Assembly (NCBI GenBank): GCA_000827495.1 | Contig: KN817520.1 | Coordinates: 601,700 to 665,699 of the forward strand | Length of the DNA: 64,000 nucleotides | DNA from: Hypholoma sublateritium FD-334 SS-4 | Lineage: Eukaryota; Basidiomycota; Agaricomycetes; Agaricales; Strophariaceae | Direction of reading: 5' to 3' | Shown: positions 2,476 through 16,397 of the stretch, piece after piece | Layout: each line of letters opens with the position of its first letter | Position numbering within the stretch: the first letter of the stretch is position 1 | Position numbers and translations under genes: made by a program | The notes under the pieces: model-generated | Database searches by the model: none | Told to the model about the DNA's origin: nothing | Seen by the model: only the letters and a program-made list of their open reading frames with translations

Positions 2476-5306
2476 ATGGCTCAAAGAAAGACAAGAGCGA
2501 AAGGGAAGTCACCCCAGGCTGCGGTGCAAGAAACCTACGACGGGCTGAACAAGCTCAAGGTCATAGATCTTCGCAAACAGGCTACGGTATGTGTCCACGA
2601 TTCTTCCTATCTCTCCTCCCTGATCGCCTTTCATTGTGCGCAGGCTGCTGGTATAAAACCTGGCAAATCGACCAAAGCGACGCTTGTGCGCCTCATATGT
2701 GCATCGAGGAATATCCCTCTGCCTGAGTGAGTCGCCTTTTATTTATCTCGTGACCTACAACTTACCTACTGTGGCGCGCAGAGACGAGCAACACGAGTCT
2801 ATCCCCCCTCTGCCTTCTCTGTCGCCTAGCCCAACTATCCTATCCGCTCAGCGAAAGGCTGCCCACAAGGCCAGTGCCACCGCCGCCACCAACGTTCCTG
2901 ATGCTATGCCTTCAGATGGGCCTGCTGGACCGCTTCCAGAATACCGTATGTCACCCTCTCCATCTTTGTCTTCTGGGGTCCGCTACTTACTCTTTCTCGT
3001 AACCCAGCCGCTAATCGGGCCAACCCGCTCGACACTCGGCGCGTTCCGCCAGCACCCCTTGATACAGAAGCTCCTCCAGGCAACTATATGAACCTTCCCC
3101 CACTGGAGAACACCCCGGAGCCGCAAGCCCCACTTCCGGCGGACCGCAGGACCCTCCAGCAGACCGTGGGCATGCTCGCGGCCTTCAAGCGACAGAATGA
3201 TGAACTTGCAGAGCAGGTGCAGAAGCTCAATGAAATGGCTTGTAAAGTCAAAGAAGAGGCCTCAACACTCAGGATGGTGTTACACGTGGAGAAGACCCGT
3301 CGTGAGCGCGCGCAGGTGTATATCCTCAATCACAGGTCCGAGACACCCACACTGTCGCTCGATGATGTTTTCCTTCCCGACCGTGACGTGATGGTTATCC
3401 AAGACGAAGAGACCGGAGAGCTGGTCGAAGAGGTCGATGCCATAGTACAGGACACGCCCCGTTTTGCAATGATTATGGAGGACGAGAAGAACAGGGCTGT
3501 GTTCCAAGACTTGTCAGTCGTGTCCCTATCCCTTCCTTCTTCAGTGCTGACTGTTGCTTTTATAGTTATTCTGCCAACGTACGCAACGGCGACGTTGACG
3601 ACGACGACGACGACGATATGGAAGACGACGAAGGTACTGGAGACAACGATTTGGAAGAATCTTTTGTGGCCGACCTGCTAGACCCCGGCAGTGGAGGAGC
3701 AGAACATCCTATCATGGGCGACAAGGATCGCAATGTTGATGTCGGGTCGGCTACTGCGACAGCAGCAGCAGCGGCACTAAACACCAATCCTCTCGCACAC
3801 CCCCCTCCCCTTCCTGGTAGAGGTCTGAAGAGGACTGCCAGCTTCCGGGAAGACTCCAGCAACGACGATGAAAACCCTTTTAATCCGAAGCGTCCACGTC
3901 TAAATCAACAAGCTCCTCACCCTAGCGATGTCGTGAAGCGTGCTCCTGTTCCCCACCAAACTCCCAAACGTATGAAGAGAGCACCCTCGATGGTCAAGAC
4001 GCGGCCTCCTGCAAAACTTCCCTTACCGAAAGGCACTGCGATGAGCTTCAACATGGTTGATGGGAGGCTGCATCCCAAAAACCGTCCTTCTACTCTTGGA
4101 CTCGCCCCTCCGGGCCCAAAGCCCGAACAGGAAGCCGCACCCGCCGAGGATGCGCCCCCAGCTGAAGCGGCGCCCACTAGCACTCCTTTCAGCGCTCCCA
4201 TGCGGACACTCCGTGGTTTGGTAGGACGTATATATTCCGGTGCAACCCCCTCGAATCCGCCACCCAGTTCGCAGCCCCGGGGCAATGTAATTGGCAACAC
4301 CAATGCTACACGCGCGGCGGTCGCTGCTGCGCGACCCTTACAGCGTCAGGATGCCTTTTACATTTACCGTAGGGGAGACACGACCGTCGAACTGCCTTTG
4401 CGGGCTGAGGACTGTGTGTTCGGCGACGCTGGTGCTCGTTCTACCATGGGCCCCCCGTCAACCTCACAGCGCCAGGGTGCCGTGTTTACCAACGCCGGCG
4501 CTCGTTGCGACACAGACACCTACATGTCTAATTTTCAGAATCTGCACAGTACAGTCGGCGACGCCAGTGCAAGGACGGCCGCCGTCAATGCGCGGCCCCT
4601 GCAGCGGGAAGACAGCGCGGATTCCAACATTAGCGATCGCACCGTAATCGGCACCACTCGAGCTCCCGTTCAGCGAGAGGACAGCGTGGCTAGCAGCAGC
4701 GGTGCTTGGAGCAGCGCGGCTACCACTGGCCGTGGGGCTTCGTCGTCCTTACAGCGCGAGGAAAGCATGGCTAGCAGCAGTGGTTGGAGCACTGCCACGA
4801 CCGCTGGCTATGGGGCATCGGCGACATTGCAGCACTACGCTAGCGTGGCTAGCAGCAGCGGTGCTTGGAGCAATGCCGCTACCACTGCAAGTGGGCATGC
4901 CACCTCGTCGGATTTCCAGCGCCTGGAAAACGTCTATTCGAGCATTGCTGCACGCCGCGATGCCGATATCATTGCCAGTTCGACGTTACGTCAAGACAGT
5001 CCTGCTGCCAGCGACACCAGCACTCGCACTGTGCTCCAAGGCTATGCGCCATCTCTCCCTTCCCCCAGACGTGCAGTGGATGCCCCACGGCCGCTTCTGC
5101 GGCTAGACATCCCTATTCCTGCTCCCCCCACACAAGTCTCCAATGCCAATCATATAGGGCCGGCATGGGCTGTTGGAACCCTAAGTGGTCCGCCTCTTCG
5201 CCGGCATGAGACAGTCGCAGATCGTGCCTTCTTCCACTTAGATAGTGATCTCCCGCAGCCCAGACGGTCTGGTCGCCGGCATGGTGATCCGTTGTACATA
5301 GATTGA
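2476..5306 (+). CDS. Hypothetical SAP-motif and coiled-coil protein (867 aa)
   Basis: Five exons join in frame: 2476-2586, 2644-2726, 2782-2945, 3008-3512 and 3566-5306. The N-terminus is basic, followed by a SAP-like helix pair (KLKVIDLRKQA, then AAGIKPGKSTKATLVRLI). Around residues 155-210 is a heptad-type coiled coil (QQTVGMLAAFKRQNDELAEQ onward). An aspartate run follows at about residues 295-310. A probable nuclear localisation signal (NPFNPKRPRLNQ) lies near residue 385. The C-terminal third is a Ser/Ala/Thr-rich low-complexity region made of degenerate repeats opening with LQRED. The layout suggests a nuclear, possibly chromatin-associated protein, but no family is recognised. The exon junction at 2643/2644 rebuilds the SAP-like motif, which supports the model. 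Confidence 0.7.
4665..4990 (+). repeat. Degenerate tandem repeat inside the coding region, unit about 80 bp
   Basis: Units starting near 4667, 4746, 4825 and 4911 encode variants of LQREDSVASSSGAWS followed by an Ala/Thr/Gly-rich tail. Unit lengths are about 78-84 bases and always multiples of three, so the frame is kept. Looser LQR-x-D repeats extend upstream to about 4340. This looks like in-frame expansion of a disordered segment. Confidence 0.7.
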
Positions 5307-6702
5307 CAATTGGCTGACAATTGCTGAAGTGGCCGTGTCTGAATTCCTTTCTACGTTTTCCTATCAATTTGGTGAATAATGTTCTTACTGATATCCTCTG
5401 CCGTTCTCTCGTGTATAATAATATTGTTTCTGTTCGTCTCTCGCCTTGGTGTATGCAGCACCTTTTTCTTGGTTATTTCATAATGTGGTTCCTTTCGTGC
5501 TACGCTTTTCCATCGACCCGCCTGCAAATCATTGGACTCATAATCTAATTAGCATTGTTCATCGTTTGCTCATTTGTGTGCCTCAACTCGCCCCTTCAAT
5601 TGTGATTTTGCTTGCCAGCTTCTTGGATAATTTACGTGTATATTTTACTATTAGTGAAAATTACATTCAAGATAACCTGTGTACTTATAATAAAGCCGTA
5701 GGGCCGGCTAACGTCGGCATAGCCCGCTACCTTTCCTTATTTCCTCGCTTTTGAGGATTGCTCGAGGAAGATCAACTTATGGTTGCCTGAAGTCAAGACC
5801 ACAATCTGCCCTGTACATATATTATGTGTTTANTTCAATTNTATTTAGCGTACAAAACACCAAATCAAGTACTACTTCCTTTAAGTAAACTGGCGCAGCC
5901 CGGGCGTACGTTAGTACGCCCGGGATGCGCACCGTTTTGGGCCTTGGCGAAGTACCTACATTACAGTAGAAGAAAATAACAATAAGTATGACCAGAATGA
6001 AAATCACACAAAGATTGAGAGGAATAGGCATCAGTGNAATAGAACTTAGAAGATTGCTGCACAGGTCTAGGCTGAATAGCGGCCTATCGGTGCATNTATT
6101 CACTGGCNATCGCATGCTTATTCTAGTTTTTTATTTGGCATNGACCTACCTCATAATTAGTGCTCTACTAAGTAGTTGTCTGCTTCCCTCAGGAAGGATT
6201 TAACTGAATGCCTACACAACACCGGAGGGGCAATGAAAAATCCGATGCGTGACTGCGAGAGAAACACACCATAAAAGGAAGAATTCAAAACGCCCGCCAA
6301 TTTTGAAAAGGGTCCACTCGATAAGACCCACTACCCAAGGTAGCGGGGATAAACTGAATAGTATCACCTGAGGGTATTTCGGATCAGCGATGTAACTGAT
6401 TTTGTTTTTCGGGAATCTCTGAAGCGGTACAAGATGGCTGTATATTGAACAAGCATTGGGCCATCGAAATGCCAACTTGCTCGCCGTCCTAAATAGGGCA
6501 GACAAGTGATGGCGGAGTTAGATTGTGGGCGCTTAAATATTACCTTGCCGACAGGACTACGCTCTTCGCAGCAACTGTACAGAGTCCGCTGCACATTTCT
6601 TCATTCATCTCTCCGACCGCTGCATTGTTGCATATTGGACTGATTGTTTCTGAATCACAAGAAAAGGCAAGCTTGAAATCCAGCTTTCTCGTTGTGAAAT
6701 TC
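5307..6702. other. AT-rich gene-free stretch with repeat-like character
   Basis: About 1.4 kb without a supportable gene. It includes several N positions between 5833 and 6142, and a strong palindrome near 5893-5930. The N cluster is consistent with a collapsed multi-copy repeat or haplotype differences. Open frames are short and broken. The last part, just before 6703, is the 5' flank of the eIF4G-derived gene. Confidence 0.5.
5893..5930. repeat. Long near-perfect hairpin (17-bp arms, 4-nt loop)
   Basis: GCGCAGCCCGGGCGTAC is followed by the loop GTTA and then GTACGCCCGGGATGCGC. The arms pair at 16 of 17 positions. The hairpin is GC-rich inside AT-rich, N-containing sequence. It could be a transposon end or subterminal hairpin; no CTRR terminus was seen within the expected distance, so a Helitron end is not supported. 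Confidence 0.75.
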
Positions 6703-6782
6703 GTATGTATGCAGCCCCGCCGCATCTCATCTGGCCGTTTATTCTGCGATCCATTTTCGACATCTGACTTCTTTCACGCCAG
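6703..6782 (+). other. Probable 5' UTR intron of the eIF4G-derived gene
   Basis: GTATGT at 6703 and CAG ending at 6782 bracket 80 bases directly before the ATG at 6784. The same arrangement (donor context AATTC|GTATGTAT, acceptor one base before the ATG) occurs at 11413-11490 in front of the full eIF4G gene. The shared position shows that the duplication included untranslated sequence. Confidence 0.6.
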
Positions 6783-6783
6783 A

Positions 6784-8506
6784 ATGAGCAAATCTTTAAC
6801 TGTAACTGTGCCAAAGAAGCCGCGTCCAGGAAAGTCAGCGTGGGCAAGGGGCCCCCCGCAGAGAACGACAGCACCATCTCCACGCTCTCAGTCACCGGTG
6901 GCGTCAACACCCATACACCAAACCCATTCCTTCTGTTCCATAGATCCTGTCCAGGATATCCCTATCAAAATTGGCGTTACCTTATCATCCCAGACGGGTC
7001 CTCCTCAAGTGCCTTCCCAGATGCAACCCCAAATGCATCAACACATGCCTATGGCATGGCAAGGTTACTACGTACGTCTGTCTTTATCATGAGGGTCTAT
7101 TTTCATCTCACATATTTAATTACTAGCAATATCCTCCTCCCGATCAGCAACAACATTACATGTATTCTCAATGGTATCCCGCCCCTATGCCTATGCAACC
7201 GCCCCACGGGCAACACCAGCCGCCACCACCCGGCCCACATATGAGTCCACACCCCAATATGCCCATGTCTCCACGAAACCCTCCTTCATCACTTCAAGGC
7301 CCCGGCACGCCTATACTATCGCACGCGCACGCGCTGCCTAACCCCGTCCACGCGCCGCATCCGCCGCCTGCGCTTTCCCACGCGGCCAACTCCATCGGCG
7401 GCNTCACGTCCCCACCGCCCACGCCCNCGNCTGCATCGATACCCCGCCTGAATGCAGGCTCCAATGCCTTCGTCCCACGCCAAAAAGTCACACTGAAGAA
7501 GGAAGATGGGACGGAGGTCAATCTAGACAACATCGCGAAGAGCTCGCCGGTGCCAGCGGCGACGCCGCCGGGGTCCGTGTATAGACAGGGCAGCCCCGGC
7601 ACGCCAAAAAAGCGGTCGAGCGTCCGCATAGAGTTCGTGGATCAGGGCAAAACGCGTCTTGCTCAGGATGAGGCGCGGGAGACGCCGCACACGCCGCCGA
7701 CCGCATCGATACCCCGCCTGAACGCTTACGCAGGCTCCATTACCTTCGCCCCCCGCCCCAAAGTCACGCTGAAGAAGATGGACGGGACGGTGATTAACCT
7801 AGACAACATCGTGAAAAGCCTGAGCTCGCCGGCGACTGTGGCGACGCTACCGGTATCCGTGTATGGACAGGGCAACCAAAGCAAGCCGAACAAGCGCCCT
7901 ACGGGCGTCCGCAAAGAGTCCAAGGACCAGCGTAAAATACGCCTTACCCTTGAGGAGGCACGGCTCCAGCGCGTAAGGTTGGCGCCGTCGGACCAACTGC
8001 GCGCTTCTGACGGCTTGGCGTCGCCGCCGCCCACGCCAACGTCTGGGCTGACGCCGTTCGGTCTGAGCAGACACCCTTATACCACCGTTTCTGCCCCACG
8101 GGACCTACCAGATATGGCGGCCAGCCTACCAGCACCACATTTGGGGTTGCGGGAGGAGGAGGAGCGCCGCGCCCGCGCGGGAGAGGACGGTAGGGACGAC
8201 GACGTCGCTGAGGGCGGTAGTACCAGCACCGCACCGGCAACTGTGCTCACGCCCGCGGCGGGCCTTGCGCCCGGGGTTGAGCTGCCATTTGCATTATCTT
8301 TGGAGGATTTTTGCGTTCGATATGGGGTGGGCACGTGGGACCGGGAGCGGCTTGCGCGACTTGAGTTCCAGCCCGGAGACGAGATTGAGACGCTGCCGGA
8401 GGACGAGTGGAAGGGTGAGGGCTTTACGACCCTTGCGTGGCGGCGCGTTGTCGTGAAGAATAATGCTTTTATTTCTGATTCCCGGAACGGTCTTTGGGGG
8501 TACTAG
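6784..8506 (+). CDS. Chimeric truncated eIF4G paralogue with SAM-like C-terminus (555 aa)
   Basis: Exons 6784-7071 and 7127-8506 join in phase 0 around a 55-nt intron. Residues 1-95 match the N-terminus of the eIF4G at 11492 (SAWARGPPQ, HMPMAWQGYY), but with the region of its first intron and most of its exon 2 removed. The following part matches eIF4G exon 3 (QYPPPDQQQHYMYSQWYPAP, KVTLKKEDGTEVNLDN) up to SVRIE. Then comes a second, diverged copy of the ASIPRLNA..KVTLKK segment. The C-terminal 170 residues are unrelated to eIF4G and end in a compact module (LEDFCVRYGVGTWDRERLARLEF, PGDEIETLPEDEW, FTTLAWRRV) resembling SAM-type helices. The eIF4E-binding motif, MIF4G and MA3 are absent. Three N bases fall inside. 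Intron retention shows DNA-based duplication, not retroposition. Whether it is expressed is unknown; function is not assigned. Confidence 0.65.
7432..7962 (+). repeat. Internal tandem duplication of an eIF4G N-terminal segment
   Basis: Copy A runs from about 7432 to 7677 and copy B from about 7702 to 7962. Both begin with codons for ASIPRLNA and contain VTLKK-x-DGT and LDNI-x-KS. Copy A stays close to the eIF4G parent through its middle. Copy B is more diverged there, but its end (ESKDQRK) matches the parental ESEDQRR better than copy A does. The frame is kept through both. Confidence 0.75.
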
Positions 8507-9372: not shown

Positions 9373-10383
9373 CCCTTGTATCGTTCCGCCACAGGCGCTC
9401 GTGATGGATCGCTGCCCACCCTGCCCACGTCCGACTACAGGCACCCGTATGACATGCTTCTCAATCCACCGCGCGCGACGCCCAGCGCTCCTGCGCAGTC
9501 GGCCCAGGGGCCCGCTTCTGGGCCCTCTTCTGGTGGCCTGGCTTCGCCACCGCCCACGCCGGCGGCTAGGCCGACGCCGTCCAGCCTGAATAGTCACTCT
9601 TCATATGCGGCTGTCTTTAGCCCACTGGGCGCGCCAAATACGACAGCCAGGATTGACCACGTCCTGGACGACGCCGTGGGTCCGGGTGTGGATTGGCGTG
9701 CGCGCGTACCAGCGCCGCATTTGGGGCTGACGAAGGCGCAAAACCGTGCGCGCGCAGGTGCCCTCCGAGCGATGCTCGCTCTGAACCGCGAGGAGGAGGA
9801 GCGGCGCGCGCGCGCGAAGCTGGACGGCAGGGACGACGACGATAGCGCAGAAAGCGGCGGTGATACAGCACCGGCGCCCACGCGTGCTGTACTTGCGGGG
9901 CCGCGCCAACCAAGGCCGCGCCAATCAAGGCCACATTTGCGGTGGTCGATGGCGGAGCAAAATGCTGTGCGTGCAGATGAGTGCAGGTATGAGCTCCCTT
10001 TGCCGAGTCATGGGGAGAAGCTACAACGCGCGGGCGCGGAAGAGAATGGCAGGGATGCCGGTGGCGCAGGAAGCGATACTATCACAGCGCCGACACCTCC
10101 GCCTGCGTCTGCTGTGCCTGCCGCGGCGACGGCGCCAACGGGAGGTCCTATACCCGCGCTCGAGCCGCCAGATGTGCTACTAGAGGAGTTCTGCCGATAC
10201 TACGGGGTGAACGCGACAGACCAGGCGCGGCTCGCCAGGCTTGAGTTCGAACCTGGAGACGAGATCGAGACGCTGCCGGAGGAGGATTGGAAAAATGCGG
10301 GCTTCACGACGCTTGCGTGGCGGCGCATTATTGCGAAGAATAATACGTTCATTTCTGATTCCCGGGACGGACTTTGGGGGTAG
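9373..10383 (+). pseudogene. Partial paralogue carrying the SAM-like C-terminal module
   Basis: An open frame of about 335 codons ends with LLEEFCRYYGVNATDQARLAR, PGDEIETLPEEDW, FTTLAWRRI and SDSRDGLWG, closely matching the end of the gene at 6784-8506. The PAPHLGL and EEEERRARA segments and the GLASPPPTP linker are also shared. The frame opens right after a stop at 9370-9372, and the first ATG in frame is at about 9453. No eIF4G-derived front is present. It is either a 5'-truncated copy or a gene with an undetected upstream exon (a possible acceptor AG sits at 9371-9372). Extra sequence in its middle separates it from the paralogue. Function unknown. Confidence 0.5.
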
Positions 10384-11412
10384 CTTCTGTTGCCTGTGTA
10401 TGTATGTGGTGATTTGTCGCTTTTTTGTTTTACTTTGCTCTCCAACTGAATTAAATATACCCGGCGCTCTTTTTGTACCCACAGCACACCACTTGGTGTG
10501 CTGTGTTATATATCACTTTTTGAGCGGTCTTGAGCCAGTTTAAATGTAATTCTCGACCAGGTTTAAATAACGCAATAGATAAGGACAGCTTCGGACCTAC
10601 CATTTTGAATTATACATTTATTCCTTAGAAGGTGGGTAGGTTGTGCCGTTTTGAAGTAAATACGATAAGAGCTTAACCTTGGAGTGCAAGTGTTGAAGGC
10701 TTCATATTTCGGAGACTGGCATAAATCCTCGACCAGCTTCACGACATGTTTTAGTTCTGCTCAATGACTTGGAGCATTAGCGGGAACTCCGAGTCGGAAT
10801 AGGCGCTAGGCGCTGTTTGGGACTCGTACTCGGGAGAAGGAGAAGCGCCCAGCGGCCCGACTGATGAAACACATGAGCTGGGAATAAAATGTCGCTAGCT
10901 CACTGAGGGGAGGCTTTTTTATCGCACCATGGATACGATAAAAACCCAGGGTTATTACATCCCGAGAACCCAGTTTTTGCTGCTACAAATTTGTCGTGCA
11001 TCAAGACCGTTCTCAACCATCAACAAATAACATTCGAAACTGATAACTGTTGACTGTCGAGGACCCGTAAGAGTGGCTGATCATGCGTGTGGCATGGGCA
11101 ACGGGCAGGGGTCCCGAGGAGTCAGGAGCGGGGCCGTGTTTGGTTACATAATGCGGGGGTTCCCGGGGTCCTTTGTGGGAGTTTTTTTGGTGGACTGCTG
11201 TCGATTGTTGACCTTGTCCACCGTCCTTGCCTACAGGACAGACATCTCCCTGCCGGTTCGCTCTCCACAGCGTCCGCCGCATATTTCTTCATCCCCCCTT
11301 CGACAGCTGCATTCTCGCCTGCTGGCAGGTCATTTTTGACGACCGACCCACACGCGACCTTGTTCATCCTCGAAAACGCACGCACAAAATCCAGCTCTCC
11401 GTTGTAAAATTC
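10384..11412. other. Intergenic region upstream of eIF4G
   Basis: About 1 kb with no supportable gene. Its first 150 bases repeat elements of the 3' flank after 8506. The last 100 bases resemble the sequence before 6703, so the duplicated block around the eIF4G 5' end extends into the promoter or 5' UTR. Open frames on both strands here are short. Confidence 0.45.
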
Positions 11413-11490
11413 GTATGTATCCTGCCTCGCCGCATCTCGCGGGCTGCTATCATCCATCCATCAGCGCCATCTGACCCCTTTTTGCCCCAG
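11413..11490 (+). other. Probable 5' UTR intron of eIF4G
   Basis: GTATGT at 11413 and a pyrimidine-rich tract ending in CCAG at 11490 enclose 78 bases, one base before the ATG at 11492. The equivalent site exists in the duplicated copy (6703-6782). Confidence 0.6.
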
Positions 11491-11491
11491 A

Positions 11492-14400
11492 ATGAGCAAA
11501 TCTTCAACTGCAACTGCACCAAAGAATCCGACTCCGCTTCTAGCAAAGTCAGCTTGGGCAAGGGGCCCCCCGCAGACAGCGACAGCGCCATCTCCACGCT
11601 CTCAGTCACCGGTGCCGTCTACTCCCGTACACCAAACCCATTCTCGCCGTCCCAGCGCTCTTGGCCAGGGTATCCCTATTAAAGATGGTGTCAGCGTCCC
11701 ACGAAATAACATAGGTTCAGTAAAACAAGGTTAGTCATCTGCTGTCATCTCGACTCGTGCGGCGCTAATCCTCTTCGCAGGCTCAGCAGTGACCTTTGGA
11801 TCAATAGATGACGTATCTGCGCCAATATCCTCGTCGCCTGCTGCTGCCCCAGCTCTCAAATCCGAAGGCGTAAAGTCCTTTGGGTCGGTACCTGCTGCAG
11901 CCACGCCTGCCGCCCAAAATGGCCCGACCGGCCATGTCAACGGCAAGGCCTCAATATCGTCGAGGGCTTCCGTCGTCCCTCCCACGGCCTCTTCGTCAGC
12001 ATCGACGACGCCCCCAGTTGGCGCGGCCGCGGTGGCACCGACACCGGCCAAGCCCATAATCGACATTAAAAAGATGTTCCAAATGCCATCATCCGCCCCA
12101 TCGACAAATCACTCCGAGACATCCTCGCCATCCATGCGAAGTTCTGCCCTGCCTCCACAGTCCTCGTCATCACATCCGTCCGCCTCGTCACACCCTCCTG
12201 GCTCCCAATTAGGCGCCCACTCGTATACAACCTTTGTCCCCAGCGGCTCCCGGCCACCTCAAAACAGCGGTCCCAATAACGGACCTCCCCGCTCTCCTCA
12301 ATATTCACGACAAATCCCGAACGGTACTGGGCCGCGGCAAGGCGGGCCAAATGGTGGGCCTGCCGGGCTGCCGAGCCCTCGATTAGGTCCCCACCCTCAC
12401 CCTCCCCAACCGTCTCAGATGGGTCCTCCTCCTCCTCAAATGCCTTCCCAGATGCAACCCCAAATGCATCAACACATGCCCATGGCATGGCAAGGTTACT
12501 ACGTACGTCCGTCTTTACCATGAGGGTCTATTTTCATCTCACATATTTAATTAGCAATATCCTCCTCCCGATCAGCAACAACATTACATGTATTCTCAAT
12601 GGTATCCCGCCCCTATGCCTATGCAACCGCCCCACGGGCAACACCAGCCGCCACCGCCCGGCCCGCACGCGCTGCCTAACCCCGTCCACGCGCCGCATCC
12701 GCCGCCCGCGCTTTCCCACGCGGCCAACTCCATCGGCGGCTTCACGTCCCCACCGCCCACGCCCTCGTCTGCATCGATACCCCGCCTGAATGCAGGCTCC
12801 AATGCCTTCGTCCCACGCCAAAAAGTCACACTGAAGAAGGAAGATGGGACGGAGGTCAATCTAGACAACATCGCGAAGAGCTCGCCGGTGCCAGCGGCGA
12901 CGCCGCCGGGGTCCGTGTATAGACAGGGCAGCCCCGGCACGCCGAACAAGCGGTCGAGCGTCCGCATAGAGTCCGAGGACCAGCGAAGAAAGCGTCTCGC
13001 TGAGGAGGAGGCAGTGGTGAAGGAGCAGCTGCGCGTTAAGGCGGCTGCCGATGAGAAGATCCGCAAGGAGAAGGAGGAGGCTGAGCGGAAAATCAAGGAG
13101 GCTGAGGAGAAGAAACGCGCGGAGGAGGAGGCTGAGAAGGAGCATATACGCAAGGAGGAGGAGGCGAAAGCCGAAGCTGAGCGTGCTAAGCTCGAGGCAG
13201 AGCGTCTGCGTAAGGAGTCGGAGGAGCTGGCTGCGCAGAAGGCCCGCGAGGAGGAGGAGCGTAAGGTCAGGGAGGCTGAGGAACTTAAGGCCAAGCTCGC
13301 GGCTGAGGAGAAGGCCAAGAAGGAGGAAGAAGCACGTCTGGAGAAGGAGCGTATCGAGAAGGAGAAGGTGGCCGAGCAGGAACGCATCGCCCAAGAAGCC
13401 GAGGCTGAGCGGCTCCGTCTTGAGCAGGAAGATGCTGCGAAGAAGGCTGTTGCAGTCGTTCCTGAATCACCTGAGTCGTCCAAGGAGGTTTCTGAGGATG
13501 GCGAGGTCGAGGAGGGCCAAGTTGTCGAGGTACCTGTGCCCACGGAAGAATCTAGGGAGAAACTCAAGGACAGCCTCCGTATCAATACAGTTACTTCACC
13601 TGTCGCCGACAGGAAGCAACGCCCTGGTCCTCTCGATCTTACTGGCGCGAAAATTGTCTCTGTCACCGGTACCCCTATTCCTGGTCCTCTTGCCACCGCT
13701 CGCATCATCGCTGATATCAGCAGCGTTCAGTACCCCGAGGGTGTTAGCAGCCCACGGCCTGAGCTCAATGAGAACGCGAAGGAGGGTAAATTCAGGTAAG
13801 CTCTATCTTTATAAATTATGCGCGAGTCTTATACTTATGCATGCTTCAAGATATGACCGAGAATTCCTGCTTCAATTCATGTCCATTTGCAAGGAGAAGC
13901 CTGCTATGCTTCCTCCCCTTGATGCGATTGGTCTCGAGCCCACTGACCAGCAACACCACATGAGCCGTGGCGGGTCTGGTGGCCCCGGCCGCAAGGGCCC
14001 AGGTGGACCTCCATCGCGACAAAGCTCCATCGGTCTCGGCTTCTCGCCCAACACATTCGGCGGCAAGGGCGGCCCCAACCCCTTTGGCGGCATGGGCAAC
14101 TTTGGCACCAACCCCGGCGCCAGCAAACTTAGCAGCGAGGACCGCTTCGCGGCTTCGGCCACGCGCGCGGCATCTGTCAGCGGCGCTCCGGGCATGCAAT
14201 ACACGACGCGCCCGACGGCGATGACACGCACTGCAAGCCAGGGCGGGCCTGGCGGCGCGCCTCTGCGCGACCGCACCCGCAGTAAGCGCGGCGAGAAGCG
14301 CGACGACAACAAGAAGGCTCCCGGCGGTGGCCAGCACCAGGGCGGGTACAACAGCTACCAACAGCAACAGCAACAGCAGATGATGATGAGCATGGAGCCT

Positions 14401-16397
14401 GTCGAGCCGCTGCAGGCGACGGCGAACCGCTGGGACCGCAAGGCGATCGTCGTCGACGCGGACTCTCCCGAGATGGTGGATCGCAAGGTCAAGGGTCTGC
14501 TCAACAAGCTGACGATGGAGAAGTTCGACTCGATCTCGGACCAGATTATCACATGGGCGAACAAGAGCGAGAAGGAGAAAGACGGGCGCACGCTTATCCA
14601 GGTCATCCGGCTCGTGTTCGAGAAGGCGACGGACGAGGCGACGTGGTCCGAGATGTACGCGCGCCTGTGCCGCAAGATGATGGAACAGATAAGCCCGAAG
14701 GTGCAGGACGACGGGATCAAGAACAACGAGGGCAAGCCCATCGCGGGGGGCCAGCTGTTCCGCAAGTACCTGCTCAATCGCTGCCAGGAGGACTTCGAGC
14801 GCGGGTGGGTCGCGAAGGAGACGACGGCCGCTGCCGCCGCCGCCAAGGCGACCGACGACGAGGCGGTGAAGGCGGCGAACGACAAGACGAAGGAGACTGG
14901 CAAGGAGGAGGAGGCCGTGCTCTATTCGGAGGAGTACTACGCCGCACAGAAGGCGAAGCGCCAAGGTCTCGGTCTGATCAAGTTCATCGGCGAGTTGTTC
15001 AAGCTGCAGATGCTGACGGAGCGCATCATGCACGAGTGTGTGAAGAAACTGCTCGGCAACGTCGACAACCCCGAGGAGGAGGAGATCGAGTCGCTCTGCA
15101 AGCTGCTCACGACCGTCGGTGGTATCCTAGACACGCCCAAGGCGCGCGCCCATCTTGATGTGTATTTCTCGCGCATGAAGGAGCTCACGAAGAGCCCGAA
15201 TGTCAATTCGCGAATGCAGTATATGCTCATTGTGGGTGTCTTTTACGTGCGTGATAAAGTATCAGACGCTGAGTTTGTTTTTCAGGATTTGGTTGAGTTA
15301 CGTGACCGCAAGTGGATTGCCCGTCAGAACGTCGCCGCTCCGCAGACGATTGCTCAAATCCACGAGAATGTAAGCTGCCTTGTCTGCTATATCGCCGTGA
15401 ACTATATACTGATTAATTGTAAATGCAGGCTGCGAAGGAGAAGGCCGCCGCTGAGAAGGAGTCGTATCAACGGCAGATGAGCATGTCTCGTGGTGGATCA
15501 AGGCGTGGTGGAGACCGCAATGATTACCCACAAGTCGGTCCTGACGGATGGGCTGTCGCTGGTGGCAGCTCTGGTCCTCCTCGGCCACCTCCCAAGGCTG
15601 GAGATCTGTCAAATTTTGGCAAGATCAGCAAGAGTGGGACGCCGATGAACTTCGGGCCAAGCAGTGTATTTGCCGGCAAGAAGGGNGCAGACCCGTCGAA
15701 ACGCGAGTCCATCTCTCGCACTAGCTCCTCGTCGAATATGTTCTCGATGCTTAGCAGCCAGGCTCCTGAGGCTGCGGATGCTCCTAAAGGTAAGGATTAN
15801 ATATATTCCAGATTTGGTGATTCGTGTGCTAACGATGTTCGTCTTTTNCTAGCAGCTGAGCCCGCACGTAGACGTCTTGTTCTCCAGCCCCGTTCCAAGC
15901 CTGTGGAATCGNAGACTGCAGATGGCGAGTCACCTGCCCCTGGGTCGGACGCTGGCGGCTCGGAGGAAGAGACGACACCCGAGGTGGAGTCGATGACCGA
16001 GGCAGCCGCCTCCAAGAAGATCGCCGAAGACACCAAGGAGTTCTTCGGTGTCCGGAACCTGGAAGAAGCGGAAGTNTACTTCAGCACTCTGCCNGNNCAA
16101 TTCCACCACAAGCTCGTCGACAGCCTNNTCTCGAAGGCGGTAGAGTCGAAGGAAGCCGANGCCCAGCTTGTTTCNGACTTCTTNGCGCGCTCGACTTCGC
16201 AGTGCTCNNCNGCGGCATTCGAGGAAGGGTTNTTGCCCATTGCGGAAGCCATCGACGATATCGCCATTGATGCACCCAAGGCCGTCCAACTGTTCGCCCT
16301 CATGGTGAAGGGTGCCAAGCTGGACGAGGGGCGGAGATCGACTATCGCGGCTAAGTCATCGGAGAACAGCCACACGCTTCTTGCTCTGTTACAATAG
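11492..16397 (+). CDS. Eukaryotic translation initiation factor 4G
   Basis: Scaffold subunit of the cap-binding complex eIF4F, which joins eIF4E, eIF4A and poly(A)-binding protein in the cytoplasm. Seven exons join in frame: 11492-11729, 11781-12502, 12555-13795, 13851-15231, 15286-15369, 15429-15789 and 15853-16397, giving about 1523 residues. A Pro/Ser/Gln-rich N-terminus is followed by a long Lys/Glu coiled-coil-like stretch (13000-13450). The canonical eIF4E-binding motif YDREFLL (Y-x4-L-hydrophobic) stands at about residue 734, at the start of exon 4. A MIF4G domain covers about 945-1215 (LLNKLTMEKFDSISDQII, LCRKMMEQI). An MA3-type domain is at the C-terminus (about 1391-1523). The intron at 15232-15285 is 54 nt and keeps the frame if retained, but splicing restores the usual RMQYML-DLVELRDRKW. 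Many N bases fall in exons 6-7. Long antisense frames here are composition shadows. Confidence 0.95.

What the first reader, a model, noticed from the sequence alone, without database searches (positions are those of the whole stretch)
6640..8506. Truncated eIF4G copy turned into a chimeric gene with a new C-terminus
Seen: the N-terminal exon, 5' UTR intron and exon-3 start of eIF4G are duplicated, the first intron and most of exon 2 are deleted, and the open frame continues into a SAM-like module unrelated to eIF4G. The frame stays open for 555 codons despite divergence, which argues for selection or youth. Known: eIF4G recruits eIF4E, eIF4A and PABP through separate parts. Inference: a product with only the N-terminal part could titrate N-terminal partners of eIF4G, acting as a translation modulator, or be a young gene without function.
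Basis: partly seen in the sequence, partly recalled or inferred. Interest (0 to 1): 0.8.

Follow-up and report, generated by a model that had tools for sequence, protein, structure and literature searches.

The report
eIF4G fragment fused to transposon domain
Next to its essential translation-factor gene eIF4G, this mushroom carries what looks like a real fusion gene: the start of an eIF4G copy joined in frame to a small domain that mobile DNA elements also carry, and it is this borrowed end, not the eIF4G part, that looks preserved by selection.

Summary
Window 6784-7071 + 7127-8506 encodes a 555-aa frame: its head is a partial copy of the eIF4G gene 4.7 kb downstream, its tail is foreign. 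Four things change the reading. (1) The head is a mosaic: old sequence (151 differences in 703 columns) interrupted by a young tract (8 in 519), so recent gene conversion from the parent, or assembler mixing. (2) The tail is a ~72-aa domain that elsewhere in this genome lies beside Tc1/mariner-type transposases (L012, L013, broken L036); it also ends the neighbouring ORF 9454-10383. (3) Three proteins from unnamed relatives are further eIF4G-tail fusions, two joined in exon 3, one in exon 5. (4) Another eIF4G-derived chimera, with the 3' half, lies about 39 kb upstream. Selection is uneven: rough copy-branch omega is 1.0-1.4 in the old head and 0.35 in the tail domain, while 4 of 4 counted coding indels keep frame. 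The chimera lacks the eIF4E site, MIF4G and MA3. I favour capture of eIF4G's 5' end by a domesticated transposon domain over an eIF4G decoy. Expression is untested.

The parts
6579..6783 (+). duplicated 5' flank and 5' UTR of eIF4G, including a putative 5'UTR intron (about 6703-6782)
   Evidence: homology to 11267-11491, 72% identity over 203 columns, six indels of which one is a multiple of 3; the intron is read from GT...AG in both copies, not tested
6784..7071 (+). chimera coding exon A: old copy of parent exon 1 (6784-6977, 84%), short diverged exon-2 remnant, then the start of the young tract
7014..7624 (+). young tract, 98-99% identical to parent 12445-12962 including intron 2 (apart from the 90-nt segment); probable gene conversion from the parent
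   Evidence: 8/519 differences against 151/703 in the old parts, Fisher p 9e-30 with boundaries chosen after inspection
7072..7126 (+). intron, parent intron 2 counterpart, GT-AG kept
7127..8506 (+). chimera coding exon B with stop at 8504-8506
7236..7325 (+). 90-nt in-frame segment (30 aa, ...MPMSPRNPPSSLQGPGTP...) kept in the copy and in related eIF4Gs, missing from the parent in this assembly
7625..7963 (+). old tail of eIF4G unit A (7625-7678, 76%) and old second unit B (7685-7963, about 80%), an internal tandem duplication
7964..8287 (+). linker shared with the tails of P0004 and P0006 and, more weakly, with ORF 9454-10383
8288..8503 (+). 72-aa tail domain, also found in the second ORF of Tc1/mariner-type elements
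9454..10383 (+). neighbouring ORF (P0003) ending in the same domain, no convincing eIF4G sequence upstream; ortholog P0002 elsewhere
11492..16397 (+). parental full-length eIF4G gene (eIF_4G1 and MIF4G found; MA3 by homology with orthologs); splice model approximate in exons 4-5

Best explanation
It is a genuine, fairly old fusion gene. Recombination next to eIF4G joined the 5' end of an eIF4G copy (flank, 5'UTR intron, start codon and N-terminal codons) in frame to a small domain that also occurs in the second gene of a Tc1/mariner-type transposon family. Sequence shows: the fusion, its open frame, the intron, the transposon relatives and similar fusions in relatives. Inferred: the product works through its tail domain, which keeps its sequence, while the eIF4G head mainly supplies promoter, start and a tolerated, frame-keeping leader. 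The parent has since overwritten part of the head by gene conversion. The tail's molecular job is not shown; by analogy with transposon accessory proteins I expect nucleic-acid or protein binding.
For: Open spliced frame. Indels: 4 of 4 counted in old coding parts are multiples of 3 against 1 of 10 in the flanking noncoding parts, p 0.005; with the intron-2 and alternative 5' gaps added to the noncoding side, p 0.011-0.019. Tail domain against its paralog: pN/pS 0.38 (bootstrap 0.22-0.64), no internal indels. Polarised changes: head 40 copy-side to 2 parent-side (9 ambiguous), tail 9 to 5 (8 ambiguous), Fisher p 0.008; rough copy-branch omega 1.38 and 0.99 in the head, 0.35 in the tail. The domain lies beside the transposase in L012, L013 and L036, the 3 closest of 11 transposase matches; L012 and L013 were found through the domain, L036 independently through its transposase. 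L012 has 61-nt TIRs (90%) with TA ends. Fusions in relatives: P0004 and P0005 (exon 3), P0006 (exon 5).
Against: No transcript or protein data. The omega values rest on 65-88 codons, one paralog pair each, protein outgroups only and an assumption of equal synonymous change on both branches. The indel test has 14 events, leaves out the linker (aligned only as protein) and relies on alignment within repeats. The tail's constraint could partly reflect the paralog. The converted stretches carry too few changes to judge (pN/pS 0.17-0.19, wide intervals). The duplicated upstream stretch is short (about 205 nt before ATG). P0004 lies on a 1,507-base contig whose eIF4G part is nearly identical to another contig (P0007), so it could itself be an assembly chimera. 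The observed order (fusion, tail-only ORF, eIF4G) is not what a single tandem duplication would leave, so the route is unresolved.
Confidence: 0.5

Rival explanations
1. A transient by-product: duplication and gene conversion beside eIF4G throw off chimeric open frames that are not used and decay; this one has not yet decayed.
For: Head omega near 1 on the copy branch; random change leaves no stop in 20-38% of simulations; other truncated eIF4G pieces exist, including P0026, which I read as frameshifted; a second chimera about 39 kb upstream.
Against: Indel phase (4 of 4 against 1 of 10, p 0.005; 0.011-0.019 on wider counts) and tail constraint (pN/pS 0.38); tail linker conserved to P0004/P0006 in relatives.
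Confidence: 0.28
2. A translation modulator: the head binds eIF4G's N-terminal partners (RNA, perhaps PABP) and titrates them, now with two copies of the conserved KVTLKKEDGTEVNLDN unit.
For: The conserved unit is doubled and one copy has been refreshed by the parent. N-terminal eIF4G fragments can repress in mammals (PMC13081929, abstract).
Against: No eIF4E site, MIF4G or MA3 in the chimera; old head unconstrained, with the outgroup-conserved motif RRPS(A/T)LGQ lost; the repressor in that paper needs eIF4E and PABP together; no hit of the unit to solved PABP-peptide structures, so PABP binding is only a recalled resemblance.
Confidence: 0.1
3. Assembly artefact: the assembler mixed reads of near-identical paralogs, producing the young tract and the parent's missing 90 nt.
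For: N's at 7403, 7427, 7430 in the tract; 16 of the 17 N's in parent exon 5 recur at matching positions in the upstream 3' copy; the missing 90 nt is conserved in the seven best-scoring full-length eIF4Gs.
Against: Old head, unit B and tail are diverged and cannot come from read mixing; comparable fusions exist in other assemblies. It could explain the tract, not the fusion.
Confidence: 0.07

Closest known systems
Chimeric genes formed by tandem duplication and exon shuffling (for example Drosophila yakuba, PMC5460883, abstract seen)
   Same: 5' end of one gene, with introns and flank, joined to the 3' part of another nearby
   Different: here the 3' part has transposon relatives, several related fusions exist in relatives, and the head was later overwritten by its parent; the exact recombination route is unresolved
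Host-transposon fusion genes (a Tc1/mariner transposase HTH captured by F-box genes, PMC12062965, start of abstract seen in the listing)
   Same: a host part joined to a domain found in a Tc1/mariner-type element
   Different: the captured part is not the transposase but a domain of the element's second ORF
eIF4G paralogs and fragments (e.g. the viral 2A N-terminal product, PMC13081929, abstract seen)
   Same: N-terminal eIF4G sequence
   Different: lacks the eIF4E-binding, MIF4G and MA3 parts; old head evolves without visible amino-acid constraint
Multi-ORF Tc1/mariner elements (ciliate Tec and TBE, PMC7325037, two passages seen)
   Same: a Tc1/mariner-type element with more than one ORF
   Different: in Tec the second ORF is a site-specific recombinase by that paper; here it ends in a 72-aa domain without a known family
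The Tc1/mariner-type element L012:2260-5930 of this genome
   Same: carries the same domain (49% identical over the domain)
   Different: the element has a transposase and TIRs; neither was found around the window fusion

Membership tests
eIF4G | MIF4G domain | tested here: not met
   no Pfam family in the chimera's exon B at E<=1 (exon A not scanned); the genome-wide PF02854 search lists 8 places, none in the chimera
eIF4G | eIF4E-binding region (eIF_4G1, YxxxxLphi) | tested here: not met
   found in the parent at the exon 3/4 border; chimera homology ends at parent 13013, before it
eIF4G | N-terminal region homologous to eIF4G | tested here: met
Chimeric gene by partial duplication | parent intron and flank retained (DNA-level copy, not retrocopy) | tested here: met
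   intron 2 and the 5' flank with its putative intron kept
Chimeric gene by partial duplication | single open spliced frame across both parts | tested here: met
   three N's inside
Chimeric gene by partial duplication | fusion transcript | not testable with these tools
   no RNA data held
SAM domain | match to a SAM family profile | tested here: not met
   0 Pfam families at E<=10 for four family members
SAM domain | five-helix SAM fold | tested here: inconclusive
   AlphaFold2 mean pLDDT 58.2, pTM 0.36
Tc1/mariner element (genome relatives of the tail) | DDE transposase beside the domain | tested here: met
   L012, L013, L036; Pfam DDE_3 scanned in two: over the curated cut-off in L013 (31.6 against 28.6), just under it in L012 (25.8)
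Tc1/mariner element (genome relatives of the tail) | TIRs with TA target | tested here: met
   L012 and L036; none found in L013
Tc1/mariner element (window copy) | transposase or TIRs around the window fusion | tested here: not met
   with the L012 element as query, only the tail domain matches in the window, apart from two chance-level TIR hits elsewhere on the joined stretch, E about 0.8
Gene conversion | sharp identity change at homologous boundaries, including intron | tested here: met
   1.5% against 21% divergence, boundaries set after inspection; intron 96%; assembler mixing not excluded

The most novel reading that the evidence does not exclude
eIF4G is a recurrent donor in these agarics: its 5' end is repeatedly joined to a domesticated mariner accessory domain (fusion points in exon 3 and exon 5 in relatives), and the parent keeps refreshing the copies by gene conversion, yielding a new, selected class of eIF4G-promoted accessory-domain proteins, perhaps controlling the very elements the domain came from.
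Probability: 0.2. Interest if true: 0.75.

Novelty: new variant of a known kind. Interest (0 to 1): 0.5.

Why it matters
Capture of a transposon's accessory domain, rather than its transposase, by the 5' end of an essential housekeeping gene would widen what is known of transposon domestication. The locus also gives a case where head and tail of a fusion gene seem to feel different selection, and where a parent gene overwrites its own chimeric offspring. If the fusions in relatives arose separately, eIF4G would be a natural test bed for how fusion genes are born.

Tried and rejected
Considered and set aside: the 555-codon frame as proof of selection (weak); retrocopy (introns are kept); a transposon insertion still recognisable at the site; an eIF4G remnant upstream of ORF 9454-10383 (no convincing match); a SAM label from Pfam, PDB sequence or AlphaFold2; PABP-motif membership of the duplicated unit through PDB sequence search (one unrelated hit). 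A single tandem duplication as the full route: it predicts the order tail gene, fusion, eIF4G; observed is fusion, tail-only ORF, eIF4G. Fold search was not run because the model was poor. Paper searches: eIF4G with duplication in Agaricomycetes (1 of 1 listed), eIF4G gene conversion in fungi (1 of 1), eIF4G fragments or paralogs (12 of 39), mariner with second ORF or SAM domain (8 of 8), mariner accessory proteins (10 of 24); the listed titles and abstract starts describe no such fusion. The library lacks most subscription papers.

Full report
What is there. The window lies in a 46.1-Mb assembly (281 contigs) as C3:601700-665699. Its eIF4G scores best against Pholiota conissans, Flammula alnicola, Galerina, Gymnopilus and Psilocybe among the 120 listed of 302 hits, so the organism is an agaric near Strophariaceae/Hymenogastraceae (inference). 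The fusion gene reads 6784-7071 + 7127-8506, 555 aa, with a GT-AG intron matching parent intron 2. The parent eIF4G follows at 11492-16397.

Mosaic head. Against the parent, the old parts (5' flank, exon 1, end of unit A, unit B) differ at 151 of 703 columns; 7014-7239 plus 7326-7624 differ at 8 of 519, intron included (Fisher p 9e-30, boundaries set after inspection). This fits gene conversion from the parent with homologous boundaries. The copy also holds 90 nt (30 aa) absent from the parent; the seven best-scoring full-length eIF4Gs (P0034-P0040) have that motif, and 90 of 114 listed eIF4Gs of at least 1300 aa match a loose pattern for it. So the parent lost it after conversion, or the assembly swapped it. 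Read mixing is a live worry: 16 of 17 N's in parent exon 5 recur at matching positions in a second copy upstream.

Tail. The last 72 codons match ORF 9454-10383 (69-70% aa) and two further places in the genome (counts there are lower bounds). Each of those two, L012 and L013, lies beside a transposase ORF in convergent orientation. A search with the L012 transposase gave 11 matches in 10 loci. The three closest (L012 itself, L013, L036) carry the domain at the same place; L036, found by its transposase alone, is the independent case, and its domain is broken into two frames. Of the other seven loci, L047 has a weak match (E 0.06) and six have none at E 3. L012 is a 3.67-kb element with TA-flanked TIRs; L036 also has TIRs; none was found in L013. 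Chance adjacency, from 11 matches and an assumed 3-kb window, is about 7e-4 per locus. No Pfam name, solved relative or confident fold was obtained.

Relatives. Of 5 hits for the tail among 75 candidates (one, P0003, is the window's own ORF), P0004 and P0005 join eIF4G exon-3 sequence to the tail, P0006 joins eIF4G exon-5 sequence to it, and P0002 is an ortholog of the tail-only ORF. P0005 and P0006 are on contigs of the same length (209,851 bases), so probably one genome. In P0004 the eIF4G unit is 99% identical to P0007, an eIF4G exon-3 protein from another contig: a recent copy, a conversion, or a misassembly of a short contig. Truncated eIF4G pieces without the tail also occur, in Laccaria (P0012, P0016) and others.

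A second chimera. At C3:566.6-569.8k, about 39 kb upstream of the fusion, a diverged MIF4G domain runs in frame into a copy of eIF4G that matches window 13933 to the stop at 16397 (100-column windows mostly 86-100% identical; pN/pS 0.22 over 409 codons; introns inferred). Neither chimera contains the eIF4E site at 13852.

Selection. pN/pS with bootstrap range: exon 1 0.76 (0.38-1.67), unit B 0.58 (0.37-0.92), unit A tail 0.68 (0.22-3.30), tail linker 0.60 (0.46-0.80), tail domain 0.38 (0.22-0.64); the converted stretches 0.19 and 0.17 with too few changes to judge. With protein outgroups, changes fall 18:1 and 22:1 on the copy side in exon 1 and unit B (1 and 8 ambiguous), 5:0 in unit A (4 ambiguous), and 9:5 in the tail domain (8 ambiguous; P0002 left out of the outgroups as the ortholog of the paralog). 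Assuming equal synonymous change on both branches, copy-branch omega is about 1.38, 0.99 and 0.35 for exon 1, unit B and tail domain. Coding indels: 4 of 4 in phase, noncoding 1 of 10, p 0.005; adding the intron-2 gap and a further 5' gap seen in the longer alignment, p is 0.011-0.019. Absence of stops alone is not telling: simulated survival 20-38%.

How it most likely works. Shown: a frame-keeping fusion whose old eIF4G head has lost amino-acid constraint and whose tail domain keeps it. Inferred: the eIF4G part supplies a start and flank; the transposon-related tail does the work. The decoy idea is weakened by the missing eIF4E site and the unconstrained head. In mammals the repressive N-terminal fragment needs both eIF4E and PABP (PMC13081929, abstract).

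Limits. No expression data, one strain, short alignments, relatives known as predicted proteins only, species of relatives unnamed.

Noticed in passing
G000:C3:566564-569770 (L015, L032), upstream of the window: Second eIF4G-derived chimera: diverged MIF4G domain fused in frame to a near-identical copy of eIF4G exons 4-5.
   Followed up: partly
L012:2260-5930; L013; L036: Tc1/mariner-type elements with a convergent second ORF ending in the same 72-aa domain; TIRs found in L012 and L036.
   Followed up: partly
window 15800-16232 and C3:569173-569605: 16 N's at matching positions in parent eIF4G exon 5 and its upstream copy, suggesting collapsed paralogous reads.
   Followed up: partly
window 12663-12664: Parent eIF4G lacks a 30-aa stretch that is present in the seven best-scoring full-length eIF4Gs and kept in the fusion gene.
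   Followed up: partly
proteins P0012, P0013, P0016, P0026: Other truncated or rearranged eIF4G N-terminal pieces, two annotated in Laccaria; P0013 and P0016 with repeated units, P0026 apparently frameshifted.
   Followed up: no
window 4671-4895: Short tandem-like repeats (76-89% identical) inside a long open frame (3387-5306).
   Followed up: no
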